Source: a virus. From it: DNA of 52,208 nucleotides. The notes beneath the pieces are model-generated. The model searched no databases. It was not told where the DNA came from and worked only from the letters and a program-made list of their open reading frames with translations. The position numbers and the translations under genes were made by a program. The number at the start of each line of letters is the position of its first letter. Positions within the stretch are counted from its first letter, which is position 1. Below, one piece after another: positions 19,186-31,090 of the stretch. The stretch lies in IMG/VR virus record IMGVR_UViG_3300027782_000116, positions 1 to 52,208 of that record, one strand, 5' to 3'.

Positions 19186-22083
19186 ATGAAAGAGGTTATC
19201 TCTCAGGAAGTTATTGAAAACTTTCTAAATGGCTCTGATCCAGAAGAGTTCATAGTTGGCATTGAGTATGATTACAGATCCAACAAAATTTACAAAATTA
19301 TTCAAGACCCAGTTAAAGGTAAGTATATTGTTGAAGATACCTTTGTTCCGTTTTTATGGGTTGGCGATTTAAGTGAGTTCAATTTTTACGGCGGGAGCAA
19401 GGCAACCCAAAAGAAAAAAATGGGCGAATTCGGTATTTTAAGTACCAAATTAGAAACACATGGTAATGAGCGACTAGAAGGTGGCTTAAGTTATTTAGTT
19501 AAAAGCATAAAGGGTTATCATGAATTAATTAATTTTTTCAAAATGGGTGGTGTTAATCCATGGGATGAAAAATTTAAATCACAATTTCAAATATTAACAC
19601 CTGTTGAACAATATCTTATACAAAAGAAAAAAAGATTATTTAAAGGTATTGAAGAATATTCAGAAGTTCATCGTTTTGTATTTGACATTGAGACCACGGG
19701 GCTTACTCCAGAAGATTGTAATATAATCTTGATTGGAATTAAGGACAATCGTGGTTTAAATAAAACAATTAGTGCATTTGGTGAAGATGGTGAAAAAAAA
19801 TGTATTGAGGCATTTTTTGCGGCTATAAAAGAATTAAAACCAACAATCATAAGTGGGTATAACTCAGCAGCGTTTGACTTACCATTTATTATGCGTAGAG
19901 CTGAGATACTAGGTATTAATATTAAAGAAATGACTCAAATATTCACTAACGATGGTATTAGAACAAAAGAGGGTTCGCTTAAATTAGCTAGTGAGGTTGA
20001 ACCATATACACAATATGTTTTATGGGGTTTTAGTATTATAGACATTGCACATGCAGTTAGAAGAGCACAAGCAATTAATTCCGAAATTAAAAGTTGGGGT
20101 TTGAAATACATAACAACATATTTGGAGAAAGAAAAAACAAATCGTGTTTACGTTGATGGTGCATTTATTTCAAAAATATATTTAGAAAATGAAAGTTATT
20201 ATGTTAACCCTAAGACTGGTAAGTATAAAAAAATTGGTGAGCCTGGGACAGAGGGTTTAACTGAAAAATATCCGGGGAAATTTGAAATATGGCCGGGTAG
20301 AAAAATTGTTGAGCAATATCTTGATGATGACTTGTACGAAACTATGGTTGTTGATGATAGTTTTAGCCAATCTACTTTTTTACTTTCAAAAGTAATTCCA
20401 ACAACATACGAAAGAGTGGCAACCATGGGCACAGCAACATTATGGAAAATTATAATGTTAGCGTGGTCTTATGAAAATAATTTAGCAATACCGGCAAAAG
20501 ATGAAAAGAGAGCGATTACTGGAGGGTTATCTCGTTTATTGAATGTTGGGTATTCAAAGAACATTGTTAAGTTTGACTATTCGTCGCTTTATCCATCAAT
20601 TCAATTGGTGTACGATGTATTCCCTGAATGTGATGTTATGGGTGTACAAAAATCTATGTTAAAATATTTCCGTAACATTCGTATTAAGTATAAACATCTT
20701 GCTGGTGAATTAAAAGATAAAGACCCAGTAATGGCCGAGATGTATGATCGTAAACAATTACCAATTAAGATTTTTATCAATGCTTATTTTGGTTCATTAT
20801 CTGCACCACAAGTATTTCCGTGGGGTGATATGAATATGGGTGAAACTATTACATGTGTTGGACGTCAATGTTTACGTATGATGATTATGTTCTTTCAAAA
20901 CAAAAATTATAAACCGCTCGTAATGGATACGGATGGTGTGAACTTTGAGACTCCTGAAAATATTAACGACACTGTTTATATTGGTAAAGGATTAAATGAA
21001 TTAGTGATTGAAGGTAAAGAGTATCGTGGTATTGAAGCTGATACTGCGGAATTTAATGATATTTTTATGAGAGGTGAAATGGGATTAGATATTGATTATA
21101 TTGCACCTGCGTGTATTAATGTTTCTCGTAAAAATTATATAATTAAATTAATTAAGAAAGGTAAAGAAAAAATTAAACTTACAGGTAACACCATCAAATC
21201 TAAAAAATTACAACAATATGTTGTTGATTTCTTAGATGAGGGCCTTAAACTTTTATTAAATGGTGATGGGCATGATTTTTTAAATCTTTATTATGATACT
21301 GTTGAAAAAATATACAATAAAGAAATACCATTAGCAAAAATAGCAAACAAAGCGCGTGTTAAACAAAGTGTTTCTGATTATAAAAAATACATTTTAAGAA
21401 CTACTAAAGCAGGCGCATTAATGTCAAGACAAGCGCATATGGAACTTGTTGTTCAAAATGATTATCACGCTAGTTTAGGTGAAACAATTTATTACATTAA
21501 CAACGGTACTAAAAAAGGTGATGGGGATGTTACTAAAATAACCAAACCAACTAAAAAGTTTCAGGAAGAATTTATTGCTAAACACGGTTACCCTATACCT
21601 AATGATTACGTACAAATAAATTGTTACATGATTGATGAGAAAGAATTAAATAATAATCCAAATATGGTTGGGGATTATAATGTGGCTCGTTATTTAACAA
21701 ATTTTAATAAAAGGTTAGAACCATTACTTGTTGTTTTTAATCCAGAAATTAGAGAAGACATTTTAATTGAAGATCCGGCAGATAGAGTTTATTTTACAAA
21801 GAAACAATGTGAACTAACATCTGGATACCCATTAAAAGACGGCGGTCAAGATAAAATTGAAGAGGTTATGACGCTTGCGGATAGTGAGGTATTGTTTTGG
21901 AATCGTGTACAAAGAGATCCTTTCTTCATGTATGTTGAAGATAGTTTAAATAAAGTAGATCAATTTTGGATTGAGCATAATAGAAAAGTTGTGTCTATGC
22001 AAATTAATGGCACGGTTAGCAACGAAGATGAAATAATTGAGACTAATGGTAATGACTATGCGATGCACGCTGTAGAGAGTTAA
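19186..22083 (+). CDS. 43: Family B DNA polymerase (gp43-like) with 3'-5' exonuclease
   Basis: 965 residues, slightly longer than T4 gp43 (898). Exonuclease motifs: FDIETTGL (Exo I, ~165), YNSAAFDLPFI (Exo II, ~225) and YLDDDLYET (Exo III, ~385). Polymerase motifs: FDYSSLYPSIQ (A, ~465), KIFINAYFGSLSAP (B, ~530) and VMDTDGVNF (C, ~585). The motif C Asp pair is intact; Gly after it is common in some family B lineages. Replicates the phage genome with the cassette at 47392-52201. It has its own 96-nt leader with a hairpin. Its stop overlaps that of the convergent bilin reductase by four bases. Confidence 0.97.
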   Translation: MKEVISQEVIENFLNGSDPEEFIVGIEYDYRSNKIYKIIQDPVKGKYIVEDTFVPFLWVGDLSEFNFYGGSKATQKKKMGEFGILSTKLETHGNERLEGGLSYLVKSIKGYHELINFFKMGGVNPWDEKFKSQFQILTPVEQYLIQKKKRLFKGIEEYSEVHRFVFDIETTGLTPEDCNIILIGIKDNRGLNKTISAFGEDGEKKCIEAFFAAIKELKPTIISGYNSAAFDLPFIMRRAEILGINIKEMTQIFTNDGIRTKEGSLKLASEVEPYTQYVLWGFSIIDIAHAVRRAQAINSEIKSWGLKYITTYLEKEKTNRVYVDGAFISKIYLENESYYVNPKTGKYKKIGEPGTEGLTEKYPGKFEIWPGRKIVEQYLDDDLYETMVVDDSFSQSTFLLSKVIPTTYERVATMGTATLWKIIMLAWSYENNLAIPAKDEKRAITGGLSRLLNVGYSKNIVKFDYSSLYPSIQLVYDVFPECDVMGVQKSMLKYFRNIRIKYKHLAGELKDKDPVMAEMYDRKQLPIKIFINAYFGSLSAPQVFPWGDMNMGETITCVGRQCLRMMIMFFQNKNYKPLVMDTDGVNFETPENINDTVYIGKGLNELVIEGKEYRGIEADTAEFNDIFMRGEMGLDIDYIAPACINVSRKNYIIKLIKKGKEKIKLTGNTIKSKKLQQYVVDFLDEGLKLLLNGDGHDFLNLYYDTVEKIYNKEIPLAKIANKARVKQSVSDYKKYILRTTKAGALMSRQAHMELVVQNDYHASLGETIYYINNGTKKGDGDVTKITKPTKKFQEEFIAKHGYPIPNDYVQINCYMIDEKELNNNPNMVGDYNVARYLTNFNKRLEPLLVVFNPEIREDILIEDPADRVYFTKKQCELTSGYPLKDGGQDKIEEVMTLADSEVLFWNRVQRDPFFMYVEDSLNKVDQFWIEHNRKVVSMQINGTVSNEDEIIETNGNDYAMHAVES

Positions 22084-22712
22084 TATACAATTGGGAAAAG
22101 AATGGAACTCATAAATTCTTTAGCTCTCTCTTCACCGAGTTTGGCTTTTAAGACATTATATGTTCTTTCATTCTTTTGCTGTTGTAAACAATATCTATTT
22201 TGCCCTTCAGCTATTTCATTTACTCTTTGTGGAATTGATTCGCATTGACCTAACATTTCAATATAGTCTTCAAAACTTCTTATTGCAATATTTGCAATAA
22301 TTTCAAATTCTTCATCACTAGGTACAATTGCAATTGCATCTTTTGAAAAAATCACCTTAGCCCAATCTGGTAAATTATACGGTGTCTTAAATTCGTAAGG
22401 CGAAACATATGTCTCCTCGTTAGCCACTGGGCTCCAATCCATAAACGCCGCCAAACATTTCTTGCTAGTAGTGATAATGTCAAAACCAAATATTGGGTCT
22501 GGACATGTAGCATTTGGGAAACACGTAAAATGAAGTACTTCCAAGTTAGCATCGCTGTATCTCTCGATATGGGCAATTCTAAAATGTTCAGCGATAAATC
22601 TACGATTATCCCAACCAAAATCTTCAGTTGGTATTTTAACTCCTTCACACTCTTTGTATATTATTTGTTCTAATTTATTAGCGACTAAATTCAGCGTTTC
22701 CTTGTAATTCAT
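22080..22712 (-). CDS. pcyX: Ferredoxin-dependent bilin reductase, PcyA/PcyX branch
   Basis: 210 residues. Family motifs in order: FGWDNRRFIAEHFRIAHIE, LEVLHFTCFPNATCPDPIFGFDII, AAFMDWSP, and the C-terminal QNRYCLQQQKNERTYNVLKA with a final SILFPIVY. Such enzymes reduce biliverdin IXa with electrons from ferredoxin. His61 and Asp78 have the spacing (17) of the catalytic His88/Asp105 of PcyA; Glu50 may match Glu76. PebS/PebA have Asn at the His position, so this belongs with PcyA or the viral four-electron PcyX type, giving phycocyanobilin or phycoerythrobilin; sequence alone does not decide which. No ferredoxin gene is in the window. The start overlaps the heme oxygenase 3' end by 35 nt. Confidence 0.85.
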   Translation of the reverse strand: MNYKETLNLVANKLEQIIYKECEGVKIPTEDFGWDNRRFIAEHFRIAHIERYSDANLEVLHFTCFPNATCPDPIFGFDIITTSKKCLAAFMDWSPVANEETYVSPYEFKTPYNLPDWAKVIFSKDAIAIVPSDEEFEIIANIAIRSFEDYIEMLGQCESIPQRVNEIAEGQNRYCLQQQKNERTYNVLKAKLGEERAKEFMSSILFPIVY

Positions 22713-23202
22713 CTAATATATTGATTATAAATTGAAACCCTTTATTTACTTCATCTGACCATTCGTCTTTTTGTACTGCACGAATAGACCCAACACATTC
22801 CATCATATTTTCAAAATCATACATTTTACCAGATCCTGGTACTTTTGTCTTCATCATTTGACCACCATATGCTAGTGCTAAATAATTTAAATAAATGTGT
22901 GGTAAAATATCTTCATTACTTAATGATTGAAGATAGACACCATATTCTTTAGTAGATTCTAAACTTACTGTCTTAGTAATAAGTCCGGTTTCTAGTTCTC
23001 TAATATCTTCAAAAATTAATTTTTCCCTAGGTAAGTTTGGGTGAGGTAATTTATGCTGCTCAATGATAGTAAAAATAACAGATTGTTGTCTAAGGTAATT
23101 TAAGTATTCTTCATTACTTAATAATCCTCTAAACATTTTTTGATTGAACTCCATCTTCTCAGCTTTGCTGTGAAGTTCTGATGTTGATTCTTTTAAATTC
23201 AT
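22678..23202 (-). CDS. ho: Heme oxygenase (biliverdin-forming)
   Basis: 174 residues. The N-terminal ELHSKAEKMEFNQKMFRG holds the proximal heme ligand candidate His11, and HIYLNYLALAYGGQMMK supplies the Gly-Gly distal helix. The enzyme would oxidise heme to biliverdin, CO and Fe2+ with electrons from ferredoxin, feeding the reductase encoded next. It is shorter than the ~230-residue cyanobacterial HO1 and lacks its C-terminal extension, as bacterial HemO-type enzymes do. It starts 13 nt after a structural-type gene, so it is probably transcribed with virion genes. Its last 35 nt are also read, in another frame, as the start of the reductase. Confidence 0.85.
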   Translation of the reverse strand: MNLKESTSELHSKAEKMEFNQKMFRGLLSNEEYLNYLRQQSVIFTIIEQHKLPHPNLPREKLIFEDIRELETGLITKTVSLESTKEYGVYLQSLSNEDILPHIYLNYLALAYGGQMMKTKVPGSGKMYDFENMMECVGSIRAVQKDEWSDEVNKGFQFIINILDELQGNAEFSR

Positions 23203-28192: not shown

Positions 28193-31090
28193 ATGGCAAA
28201 TTCAAACAGAGTATTCGTCTCACCAGGTGTGTATACATCAGAGAAGGATCTAACATTCGTGGCGCAAAGCGTCGGAGTTACAACATTGGGATTAGTTGGA
28301 GAAACCTTAAAAGGACCAGCTTTTGAACCAATCTTGATTTCAAATTTCGACGAATATAAAACATATTTTGGCGGCACGTTAGCTGCAAAAGATCCTTCTG
28401 GGAATCCAAAATATGAGCTACCTTACGTAGCAAAATCTTATTTACAAGAATCAAATCAATTATTTGTAACTCGTATCTTAGGATTAACTGGTTACTTACC
28501 AGGAAAATCTTACGGTATTAAAACATTAGGTGGTTTCGCACCAACAGGTACTGGCGCAACAATGTCAGATAAATGGGATAATTCAGTAATAACTGGATCA
28601 ACATCTGCTGACCTTGCTGTTACTTCATATTCTACTTTTACAGGAAGCACGCTTTATGCTGAGTTATCTGATAAGACAGCATTTGATGGGTCTACTGTAA
28701 CTGATTATATCTATTCAAATTTTAGTGGAGTTACAGGTGGTACAGATGGTTTATGGTTCGTAATTGGACAAATACCGGATTCAGAACTACCTATTGACGC
28801 AGCTAAAGAGGTTGTATCTGCAATGACGGGCGCATTATATGCCGACTCATCATATAACAAAAATTGGTATAATGTTTATAACAACGGAACTAATAAAGTT
28901 AACTCGTATGTTTTCACTTGGAATTTGGGTGACCGTAAATTTTCTGTAAAGAAAATAGAACACAATGCTACATTGGTTAATGACGGAACTGTGGTTGCTA
29001 CTTTAAGATCTCGTGGTGAATATGCTGCAAATGTATTAAATTATAGAGTAACTGGTTCTACACACGTACAAGTAACTGGCGCAAATATTGCAACAAACCC
29101 TCTTAGTGATTTCACATTAACTGTTACTGGTTATACTGGTAATGTTACTGACACAAAAACGTTTGCATGTTCTTTAGATATGTCATCAACAAAATACATC
29201 ACTAAAGTAATTGGTGTTGAAGTTTTTGATAAAGAAAAAGCAGAATATCCAATATATGTTCACGAAGCATATCCAAACCTAGTTAAAAATTTATTTGAAC
29301 AAGGTTTGATTAGAGGTTTGAGTACTGTTGAATATGTTAAAACTGAAGGAAATAACTTTAAAGGTGAATGGGAAACCCCAGGAACTTCAACTGTTGTTTC
29401 AGAGGTTAGAGGTGGTAAGGTTTCTGATCTTTTCCAAATATTAACGGTTTCTGACGGTAACGCAGCAAACTACAATGTAAAAGTAACAATTCAAAATTTA
29501 GATTTAGACACTGGTGAATTTGATATATTGGTACGTGATTATTTCGATAGTGATGATAATCAAGTAGTACTTGAAAAGTTCACAAGATGTACAATGAACC
29601 CAGATTTACCTGGATATGTTGCAAGAAAAGTTGGTACTTCTGATGGTGAATATGAATTAAGATCTAAACATATTATGTTAGTTCTTTCTGATGAAGCGCC
29701 TACAGACGCTATCCCAGCTGGTTTTAAAGGAATTACAACATACGGCCCATCTGGATCTACTGTTGGAGATATTACATATAAAACTAAATATTTTGATGCT
29801 GGGGAGACATTGTATTATGACGCATCAGGTATAGCACAAACAACAAATGGTGATAAAGTTAAGAAAGTAAGTTTAGGTTTCTCAACACAAGATCATTTCA
29901 CTTATGATGATGATTTATTAAAATACAAAGGTAAAGACGCGTCTAAGGCAACTAAAGGTTTCCACTTATCAGTTAATGCGGCAACAATTACTGGAACTTC
30001 TGGTGAAGCGTTGTTTACAACAACCGCATATGATTTAGAAGGTGTTGACAAAGATAAATTAGCAAAGGCGACATACCGTAAATTTACAATGCCAGTATTT
30101 GGTGGATTTGATGGTTGGGATATCTACAGAAGAACTAGAACATATGGTGATGGTTTCATCTTTGGTAAAACAACATATTCTGCTGGAAGTGATACTAATG
30201 GTGGTGTATTCAGTCACACAGGTGGTAACTCAGATTATTATGCTTACTTACAAGGAATTAACACATATGCTAACCCTGAAGCAATTGATATAAATCTATT
30301 TGCAACTCCAGGTATTAACTGGAACGATCATAGCTCATTAGTAAATCAAGCAATTGATATTATTGAGAATGATAGAGCAGATTCATTATATATCATTAAC
30401 TCACCAAACTTTACTGGCACAACCGGTACTGCTGAAGTGGTTTCTGCTATTCAAGATTTAGCATTGGATTCTAACTACTCAGCAACATATTGGCCTTGGA
30501 TTCAAGTAAGAGACACAGATAACGCAACACAACTTTATATCCCACCAACAGGTGAAGTATTAAAGAACATTGCCTTAACTGACAATGTAGCTTATCCTTG
30601 GTTCGCAGTCGCTGGTTACTCTAGAGGTATTGTTACTTCAATCAAAGCATCTAAAAAATTAACTTTAGATGATAGAGATGAATTATACAAGAATAGAATT
30701 AATCCAATTGCAACATTCTCTGATACAGGCACTATTATCTGGGGTAACAAAACGTTACAAGTTAGAGAATCAGCACTCGATAGAATCAACGTAAGAAGAT
30801 TATTATTGAGAGCAAGAAAGTTAATCTCTGCAGTAGCGGTAAGATTATTGTTTGAACAAAATGATGATCAGGTTAGACAAGAGTTCTTAAGATTGGTAAA
30901 TCCTATCTTAGAATCAATCAAGAAAGAAAGAGGTCTTTATGACTTCCGTGTAACAGTATCAAACGATCCTGAGGATATTGATGCTAACACATTAAGAGGT
31001 AAAATCTACGTTAAACCAACTAGAGCGTTGGAATTCATTGATGTAGAGTTTGTTATCACTCCAACTGGAGCTTCTTTTGAGAATGTTTAA
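28193..31090 (+). CDS. 18: Contractile tail sheath protein (gp18-like)
   Basis: 965 residues (T4 gp18 is 659), the outer tube that contracts to drive the tail tube through the host envelope. N-terminal SPGVYTSEKDLTFV is the classic sheath start. The C-terminal domain (about 835-965) is conserved: DRINVRRLLLRARKLIS, VRQEFLRLVNPILESIKKERGLYDFRV and YVKPTRALEFIDVEFVITP. The middle (~100-600), Thr/Gly-rich and variable, holds the extra length and is likely exposed on the tail surface. It is followed at once by a strong terminator and precedes the tail tube. Confidence 0.97.
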   Translation: MANSNRVFVSPGVYTSEKDLTFVAQSVGVTTLGLVGETLKGPAFEPILISNFDEYKTYFGGTLAAKDPSGNPKYELPYVAKSYLQESNQLFVTRILGLTGYLPGKSYGIKTLGGFAPTGTGATMSDKWDNSVITGSTSADLAVTSYSTFTGSTLYAELSDKTAFDGSTVTDYIYSNFSGVTGGTDGLWFVIGQIPDSELPIDAAKEVVSAMTGALYADSSYNKNWYNVYNNGTNKVNSYVFTWNLGDRKFSVKKIEHNATLVNDGTVVATLRSRGEYAANVLNYRVTGSTHVQVTGANIATNPLSDFTLTVTGYTGNVTDTKTFACSLDMSSTKYITKVIGVEVFDKEKAEYPIYVHEAYPNLVKNLFEQGLIRGLSTVEYVKTEGNNFKGEWETPGTSTVVSEVRGGKVSDLFQILTVSDGNAANYNVKVTIQNLDLDTGEFDILVRDYFDSDDNQVVLEKFTRCTMNPDLPGYVARKVGTSDGEYELRSKHIMLVLSDEAPTDAIPAGFKGITTYGPSGSTVGDITYKTKYFDAGETLYYDASGIAQTTNGDKVKKVSLGFSTQDHFTYDDDLLKYKGKDASKATKGFHLSVNAATITGTSGEALFTTTAYDLEGVDKDKLAKATYRKFTMPVFGGFDGWDIYRRTRTYGDGFIFGKTTYSAGSDTNGGVFSHTGGNSDYYAYLQGINTYANPEAIDINLFATPGINWNDHSSLVNQAIDIIENDRADSLYIINSPNFTGTTGTAEVVSAIQDLALDSNYSATYWPWIQVRDTDNATQLYIPPTGEVLKNIALTDNVAYPWFAVAGYSRGIVTSIKASKKLTLDDRDELYKNRINPIATFSDTGTIIWGNKTLQVRESALDRINVRRLLLRARKLISAVAVRLLFEQNDDQVRQEFLRLVNPILESIKKERGLYDFRVTVSNDPEDIDANTLRGKIYVKPTRALEFIDVEFVITPTGASFENV

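What the first reader, a model, noticed from the sequence alone, without database searches (positions are those of the whole stretch)
22080..23202. Heme oxygenase and bilin reductase pair in a T4-like phage
Two adjacent minus-strand genes form a complete route from heme to a coloured bilin. Viral bilin reductases are known from cyanophages (PebS) and from viral metagenome sequences (PcyX, with heme oxygenase), so the pair itself is not new. What stands out is the setting: 13 nt behind a virion-type gene, in a phage without photosynthesis genes in the window and with Bacteroidota-like leaders. Possible uses are loading host phytochromes, drawing iron or CO from heme, or reducing oxidative stress; none can be picked from sequence.
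Basis: partly seen in the sequence, partly recalled or inferred. Interest (0 to 1): 0.95.

Follow-up and report, generated by a model that had tools for sequence, protein, structure and literature searches.

The report
Phage heme-to-bilin gene pair, Bacteroidota-type
A virus that probably infects Bacteroidota, bacteria that normally make no such pigment, carries two overlapping genes predicted to cut heme open and turn it into the blue-green bilin phycocyanobilin; the pair is a known viral kind, but this lineage has a heme oxygenase whose usual oxygen-activating residues have all been replaced.

Summary
[quoted passage not shown] They overlap by 35 nt, lie 13 nt behind a head-tail adaptor-like gene, have the expected predicted folds and are under purifying selection. 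HO+FDBR pairs in aquatic phages, including an active freshwater HO+PcyA, are already published, so this is not a new kind of system.

New here:
(1) The FDBR has the PcyA Glu/His/Asp triad, not the PcyX Asp. Phycocyanobilin is the predicted product.
(2) It sits in a supported 35-member viral clade. Only the HO-FDBR pair recurs across otherwise very different gene neighbourhoods.
(3) In 34 of 35 HO sequences of this clade the distal Tyr58-Arg136-Asp140 network is replaced by Phe - Asn (His in two) - a hydrophobic residue; proximal His25 and the Gly-Gly hinge are invariant.
(4) Most clade phages lack Shine-Dalgarno leaders, like a Flavobacterium phage and unlike pelagiphages. A Bacteroidota chromosome carries the same HO type, another a decayed FDBR. 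The host is probably Bacteroidota.
(5) No phytochrome, AlaS, 2Fe-2S ferredoxin or photosystem gene in 34 clade records.

Best reading: late heme catabolism with PcyA as biliverdin sink. The payoff is unproven.

The parts
22678..23202 (-). heme oxygenase gene, 174 aa
   Evidence: Pfam PF01126 E 4.1e-11; profile vs human HO-2 E 2.7e-30; AlphaFold model TM 0.82 to rat HO-1
22080..22712 (-). ferredoxin-dependent bilin reductase gene (PcyA-type), 210 aa
   Evidence: Pfam PF05996 E 2.2e-26; NCBIfam PcyA model first, 99 bits but below its 206-bit cut-off; model TM 0.87 to PcyA
22678..22712 (-). 35-nt overlap of the HO end and the FDBR start (translational coupling, inferred)
   Evidence: close or overlapping junctions in nearly all relatives
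23170..23172 (-). codon of His11 = heme-ligating proximal His25 of human HO-1
   Evidence: His in all 117 aligned HOs
22873..22875 (-). codon of Leu110, at the place of catalytic Asp140; Asn106 (22885-22887) replaces Arg136 and Phe44 (23071-23073) replaces Tyr58
   Evidence: alignment by clade; register confirmed by profile alignment to human HO-2
22563..22565 (-). codon of Glu50 = PcyA Glu76 (Asp in PcyX); with His61 (22530-22532) = His88 and Asp78 (22479-22481) = Asp105
   Evidence: PcyA Glu76/His88/Asp105 triad and absence of Glu76 in PcyX from PMC10151467
23216..24331 (-). head-tail adaptor / head-completion-like virion gene, 13 nt upstream of the HO
   Evidence: PHROG 211 E 3.8e-9; 23% identity to the head completion protein of Flavobacterium phage immuto
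24361..26112 (-). SNF2-type helicase gene at the head of the minus-strand run
19186..22083 (+). family B DNA polymerase, convergent, overlaps the FDBR stop by 4 nt
   Evidence: PHROG 262 E 1.3e-57

Best explanation
The two genes are a co-expressed heme-catabolic relay of a T4-like phage whose host is probably a Bacteroidota bacterium. The HO binds host heme through His11 and opens it to biliverdin IXalpha, Fe(II) and CO. The FDBR, a PcyA-type enzyme with the Glu50/His61/Asp78 triad, reduces biliverdin to phycocyanobilin with electrons from host ferredoxin. The pair is read behind a virion gene, so it probably acts late. The most likely payoff is on the heme side: heme clearance or iron release, with the reductase pulling biliverdin off the HO. 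SHOWN by computation: both families and folds, adjacency, triad, clade, purifying selection, SD-less leaders, HO of the same type in a Bacteroidota chromosome. INFERRED: product, electron donor, late expression, host, payoff.
For: Families, folds and adjacency. Glu at the PcyA-Glu76 place in all 35 members of the window clade, Asp in most of the PcyX/Mosig clade. In 34 clade records, 2Fe-2S ferredoxin, phytochrome, AlaS and Photo_RC were each sought and none was found, which argues against photosynthesis, a phage-borne photoreceptor or boosted heme synthesis. Host: SD-less leaders; a clade-type HO in ordinary chromosomal surroundings of a 3.3-Mb Bacteroidota contig; a decayed FDBR, 56% identical over 139 aa, in a Bacteroidota MAG. 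FDBRs are otherwise absent from 395 sampled Bacteroidota genomes, so the host would gain a new product. Class I RNR small subunit, an iron enzyme, in 9 of 34 records. A freshwater phage HO and PcyA were shown active in vitro (PMC11480375).
Against: The distal Tyr-Arg-Asp network that drives oxygen activation in canonical HOs is absent; Asp140Ala of human HO-1 becomes a peroxidase (PMC5623701), so activity is not assured. No direct evidence for iron or CO as the payoff; a heme-side payoff does not by itself explain why a full four-electron PcyA-type site is kept. Host inferred from leaders and two chromosomal relatives, without a spacer match. A distant relative of the backbone infects Microcystis.
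Confidence: 0.6

Rival explanations
1. The product is the point: phycocyanobilin loads a host bilin-binding protein (phytochrome or bilin-binding globin) and changes host signalling during infection.
For: The phage CB_2 PcyA product assembles a working phytochrome (PMC11480375); the FDBR active site is fully kept.
Against: No phytochrome domain in 34 clade records and only 1 of 64 genomes of the family of the Bacteroidota genome that carries the FDBR remnant. That family may not be the window phage's host family. Bilin-binding globins were not searched.
Confidence: 0.2
2. The HO homologue no longer makes biliverdin by the usual route: without its distal network it acts as a heme-binding or peroxidase-like protein, or makes another isomer, and the FDBR uses host biliverdin.
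For: Tyr58/Arg136/Asp140 replaced in nearly all clade members, in a single supported HO clade even with those columns removed; Asp140Ala turns human HO-1 into a peroxidase (PMC5623701).
Against: His25, Glu29, His132, Gly143 and Gly144 are invariant in the clade and Glu62 nearly so; the HO stays beside the FDBR in 34 of 35 clade neighbourhoods; plant HO-1 works without the Arg/Asp pair by another network (PMC7948506); only 43 of 395 Bacteroidota genomes have a PF01126 HO that could supply biliverdin.
Confidence: 0.15
3. The FDBR is a PcyX and makes phycoerythrobilin, as in marine PcyX cassettes.
For: Best PDB sequence hit is PcyX 5owg; PcyX and alphaproteobacterial PcyA form one lineage (PMC10151467).
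Against: Glu, not the PcyX Asp, at the deciding position; outside the PcyX clade; PcyA is the better fold match. The published phage PcyA/X that lacks this Asp makes phycocyanobilin (PMC11480375).
Confidence: 0.07
4. The host is a cyanobacterium and the pair supplies phycobilisome pigment, as in cyanophages.
For: Microcystis phage Mel-JY01 is one of the nearest annotated relatives and partly collinear.
Against: Mel-JY01 uses SD leaders (14 of 40) and the window does not; Mel-JY01 is not among the phage records with an FDBR; no Photo_RC in 34 clade records; the close HO and FDBR relatives in cellular genomes are in Bacteroidota.
Confidence: 0.06

Closest known systems
hemO-pcyA/X(-valaS) cassette of aquatic phages; freshwater phage CB_2 (PMC11480375)
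   Same: Adjacent HO and FDBR genes in a T4-like phage; predicted PcyA chemistry, shown for CB_2
   Different: No alaS in 34 records of the window clade, against 5 of 50 in other clades; SD-less, Bacteroidota-type; HO distal network replaced.
Pelagiphage Mosig EXVC030M HO + PcyX (MT647606)
   Same: HO-FDBR order, overlapping ORFs, next to neck genes
   Different: 31% (HO) and 32% (FDBR) identity; PcyX-type Asp; canonical Tyr-Arg-Asp HO; SD leaders; flanked by 2OG-Fe(II) oxygenases and ferrochelatase
Cyanophage PcyA and PebS
   Same: Same FDBR superfamily; Glu/His/Asp triad in the cyanophage FDBRs examined
   Different: 25-30% identity; separate branch; cyanobacterial hosts
Chromosomal HO of a Bacteroidota genome (G271, L214:9235-9759)
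   Same: Up to 57% identity to clade HOs, nested in the clade, Phe-Asn-Ile distal pocket
   Different: Host gene standing alone; no FDBR found in the sampled Bacteroidota genomes apart from the G085 remnant
Plant-type HO-1 (PMC7948506)
   Same: Also lacks the Arg/Asp distal pair, with Ala before the replaced Asp
   Different: Uses His; the window clade has a hydrophobic residue there; low sequence similarity

Membership tests
Heme oxygenase (PF01126, HO-1-like) | HO fold and profile match above cut-off | tested here: met
   43.5 bits vs cut-off 23; TM 0.82 to rat HO-1
Heme oxygenase (PF01126, HO-1-like) | Proximal His25, Glu29 and distal-helix Gly143-Gly144 | tested here: met
   Invariant across the clade
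Heme oxygenase (PF01126, HO-1-like) | Canonical distal Tyr58-Arg136-Asp140 network | tested here: not met
   Phe44-Asn106-Leu110 in the window. Not universal in HOs: plant HO-1 lacks the Arg/Asp pair yet is active (PMC7948506), so this fails the canonical sub-type, not the family
Heme oxygenase (PF01126, HO-1-like) | Conversion of heme to biliverdin | not testable with these tools
   needs enzyme assay
PcyA (phycocyanobilin:ferredoxin oxidoreductase) | FDBR fold and profile | tested here: met
   PF05996 93.4 bits vs 31; TM 0.87 to PcyA
PcyA (phycocyanobilin:ferredoxin oxidoreductase) | Glu76, His88, Asp105 | tested here: met
   Glu50, His61, Asp78
PcyA (phycocyanobilin:ferredoxin oxidoreductase) | NCBIfam PcyA equivalog cut-off | tested here: not met
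   99 bits against 206: PcyA-type, not a cyanobacterial PcyA equivalog
PcyX | PcyX-specific catalytic Asp (Asp55) at the PcyA-Glu76 place | tested here: not met
   Glu50 in the window; Asp55 placed by counting residues along the 5owg chain (inference)
PcyX | Position inside the PcyX clade with Mosig | tested here: not met
   Separate clade, SH-aLRT 99
Three-gene Shemin cassette (hemO-pcyA/X-valaS) | alaS on the same phage genome | tested here: inconclusive
   None in 34 clade records; records are fragments and the 52-kb window is incomplete
Bacteroidota phage | SD-less leaders | tested here: met
   3 of 46 genes, 2.0 expected
Bacteroidota phage | Spacer, provirus or isolate link to a host | not tested
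   No spacer collection searched; only gene-level links found

The most novel reading that the evidence does not exclude
A heme oxygenase lineage shared by Bacteroidota and their phages opens heme with a distal pocket that has none of the Tyr58-Arg136-Asp140 residues, i.e. a different way of proton delivery or oxygen activation. Paired with PcyA in phages, it gives Bacteroidota a bilin they otherwise do not make, as part of a late heme-stripping step in infection.
Probability: 0.35. Interest if true: 0.78.

Novelty: new variant of a known kind. Interest (0 to 1): 0.6.

Why it matters
Why non-photosynthetic phages keep heme-to-bilin genes is an open question stated in PMC11480375. This lineage narrows it: a probable Bacteroidota host, no photosystem, phytochrome, ferredoxin or AlaS found in 34 related records, and a pair that recurs while its gene neighbourhood changes. 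The HO distal pocket is a natural test of whether the textbook oxygen-activation network is needed. Bacteroidota have culturable phage-host systems, so the question could become testable if a carrier is isolated.

Tried and rejected
PcyX identity (best PDB sequence hit): dropped on the Glu/Asp residue, tree and fold. Shemin three-gene cassette: no AlaS in 34 clade records. Cyanophage setting: no Photo_RC, no SD use. Bacteroidota promoter motif TAnnTTTG: the window's count (6 of 91 intergenic) gave no clear contrast with the other phages, so it was not used. Sigma-70 promoter and terminator scans were at shuffle level. No tRNA gene in the window. Conserved neighbours as functional clue: of ten shared clusters scanned, only thymidylate synthase (10 loci), a nonspecific endonuclease, AdoMet decarboxylase and an AAA ATPase could be named; nothing bilin-related. 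Ribosomal protein S21 occurs in 8 of 34 clade records; one (L190) looked Bacteroidota-like to me, others not, so it was not used as host evidence. Co-partition of the FDBR residue and the HO network is clade-level (few changes on the tree), not many independent events.
Full report
OBSERVATION. The ORFs at 22678-23202(-) and 22080-22712(-) are real. The first is a heme oxygenase by Pfam (E 4.1e-11), by a family profile against solved structures (human HO-2, E 2.7e-30) and by fold (pLDDT 95.8, TM 0.82 to rat HO-1). The second is a ferredoxin-dependent bilin reductase by Pfam (E 2.2e-26), PDB sequence (PcyX 5owg E 2e-22) and fold (pLDDT 96.9, TM 0.87 to PcyA). They overlap by 35 nt. The HO starts 13 nt after a gene with a head-tail-adaptor match (E 3.8e-9). 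dN/dS between the window and its three nearest relatives is 0.12-0.40 for HO and 0.09-0.16 for FDBR.

SETTING. The window is a 52,208-base IMG/VR virus record, G000. It holds a T4-type sheath, tube, baseplate hub, UvsX-like recombinase, gp41-like helicase and PhoH. No tRNA gene was found. The nearest annotated relatives are distant: Microcystis phage Mel-JY01 and Flavobacterium phage immuto for structural genes, Salinibacter and Nostoc phages for DNA polymerase.

RELATIVES. Single-protein scans of viral contigs gave close relatives. HO and FDBR lie within 150 nt in 107 of 113 non-redundant loci that hold both. A tree of 123 FDBRs puts the window in a 35-member clade with SH-aLRT 99, apart from the clade with pelagiphage Mosig and from cyanophage PcyA. 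Across that clade's neighbourhoods the only gene clusters shared by nearly all loci are the FDBR (35 of 35) and the HO (34 of 35); the next commonest are in 10.

WHICH REDUCTASE. Synechocystis PcyA needs Glu76, His88 and Asp105; Glu76 is specific to PcyA and absent from PcyX and pre-PcyA (PMC10151467). PcyX has a specific catalytic Asp55 (PMC11480375), which residue counting along the 5owg chain places at the Glu76 position (inference). The window has Glu50, His61, Asp78. Among 129 unique FDBRs, most of them viral, this position is Glu in 61 and Asp in 57; His88 and Asp105 are present in 128. The window protein is therefore predicted to make phycocyanobilin, like the freshwater phage CB_2 enzyme, which was shown to do so (PMC11480375). 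It scores below the NCBIfam PcyA equivalog cut-off, so it is PcyA-type and not a cyanobacterial PcyA.

THE OXYGENASE. In human HO-1, Tyr58, Arg136 and Asp140 form the distal hydrogen-bond network; D140A turns the enzyme into a peroxidase (PMC5623701). In the window these are Phe44, Asn106, Leu110. In the SD-less part of the clade (31 sequences) they are Phe in 30, Asn in 29 (His in 2), Leu/Ile/Phe in 31; in four SD-using members Phe, Asn, Met/Leu. In the PcyX-side HOs they are Tyr 49, Arg 43 and Asp 49 of 51. His25, Glu29, His132, Gly143 and Gly144 stay invariant in the clade. With the changed columns removed, the Phe-Asn-hydrophobic HOs still form a 40-member clade, SH-aLRT 99, with one further member of the FDBR clade (L044) outside it. 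No HO with a replaced Asp was paired with a PcyX-type (Asp) FDBR, whereas Asp-bearing HOs went with PcyX-type FDBRs in 48 cases and Glu-type in 10; this reflects a few deep splits, not many independent events. Plant HO-1 lacks the Arg/Asp pair and works through another network (PMC7948506), so loss does not mean inactivity.

HOST. SD motifs precede 3 of 46 window genes (2.0 expected by shuffling), 3 of 41 in Flavobacterium phage immuto, 14 of 40 in Mel-JY01 and 29 of 50 in each of Mosig and HTVC008M. Pooled, the window clade has 62 of 581 (43.1 expected), the PcyX group 368 of 732 (115.4 expected); four clade members (L133, L107, L113, L121) and possibly L041 do use SD. Bacteroidetes usually lack SD (PMC9723584). 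A Bacteroidota genome (G271, 3.3-Mb contig) carries a clade-type HO, up to 57% identical and nested in the phage clade, between chromosomal housekeeping genes. A Bacteroidota MAG carries a decayed FDBR: 56% identity over 139 aa, an in-frame stop, missing N-terminus and no HO detected, between a giant surface protein and a lipoprotein-like gene. FDBRs were found in 1 of 395 Bacteroidota genomes, that remnant. Together these make a Bacteroidota host likely, not proven.

FUNCTION. In 34 records of the clade there was no Fer2 ferredoxin, phytochrome PHY domain, AlaS or Photo_RC; records are fragments. AlaS occurs in 5 of 50 records of other clades. Phytochromes are in 1 of 64 genomes of the remnant-bearing family, which may not be the true host family. 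Class I RNR small subunit is in 9 of 34 records. The best-supported mechanism is HO then PcyA on host heme, with host ferredoxin. The payoff most compatible with these negatives is heme clearance or iron release with PcyA as biliverdin sink; this last step is inference. The authors of PMC11480375 likewise leave the purpose open and mention iron.

NOVELTY. HO+PcyX pairs, and an active HO+PcyA pair in a freshwater phage, are published (PMC11480375). I found no paper holding phycocyanobilin, Bacteroidota and phage together in the held library, which is partial. New here are the clade, its probable host, and the replaced HO distal network, hence 'new variant of a known kind'.

Noticed in passing
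L214:9235-9759 (G271:C1 chromosome): Clade-type heme oxygenase as a single chromosomal gene next to a ComM-like gene in a Bacteroidota genome, nested among phage HOs.
   Followed up: partly
L167:5272-5688: Decayed bilin reductase (in-frame stop, N-terminus missing) in a Bacteroidetes MAG contig; the only FDBR among 395 Bacteroidota genomes sampled.
   Followed up: partly
L168:4282-6579, also L149 and L175: HO and PcyX-type FDBR separated by about 1.0-1.5 kb instead of adjacent; in L168 the gap holds a 351-aa ORF that looks like a carbon-nitrogen hydrolase.
   Followed up: no
L045 and L048: Clade-type HO without a detected FDBR (L045) and with only a 121-aa FDBR piece 253 nt downstream (L048).
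   Followed up: no
L133, L107, L113, L121: SD-using members of the window's FDBR clade with Met or Leu at the HO Asp140 place, perhaps a host switch.
   Followed up: no
L115, L117, L118, L119, L120: Sister-lineage cassettes: Tyr at HO Asp140 with Gln at the FDBR Glu76 place (L115, L117, L118); Trp at Asp140 with Glu in the FDBR (L119, L120).
   Followed up: no
window 28193-31090: Tail sheath of 965 aa, about twice the length of the matched PHROG sheath profile (496 positions), apparently through a large insertion.
   Followed up: no
L169 and L171: PcyX-type cassettes in contigs labelled Pirellulales and Halobacteroidaceae MAGs, perhaps misbinned phage contigs.
   Followed up: no
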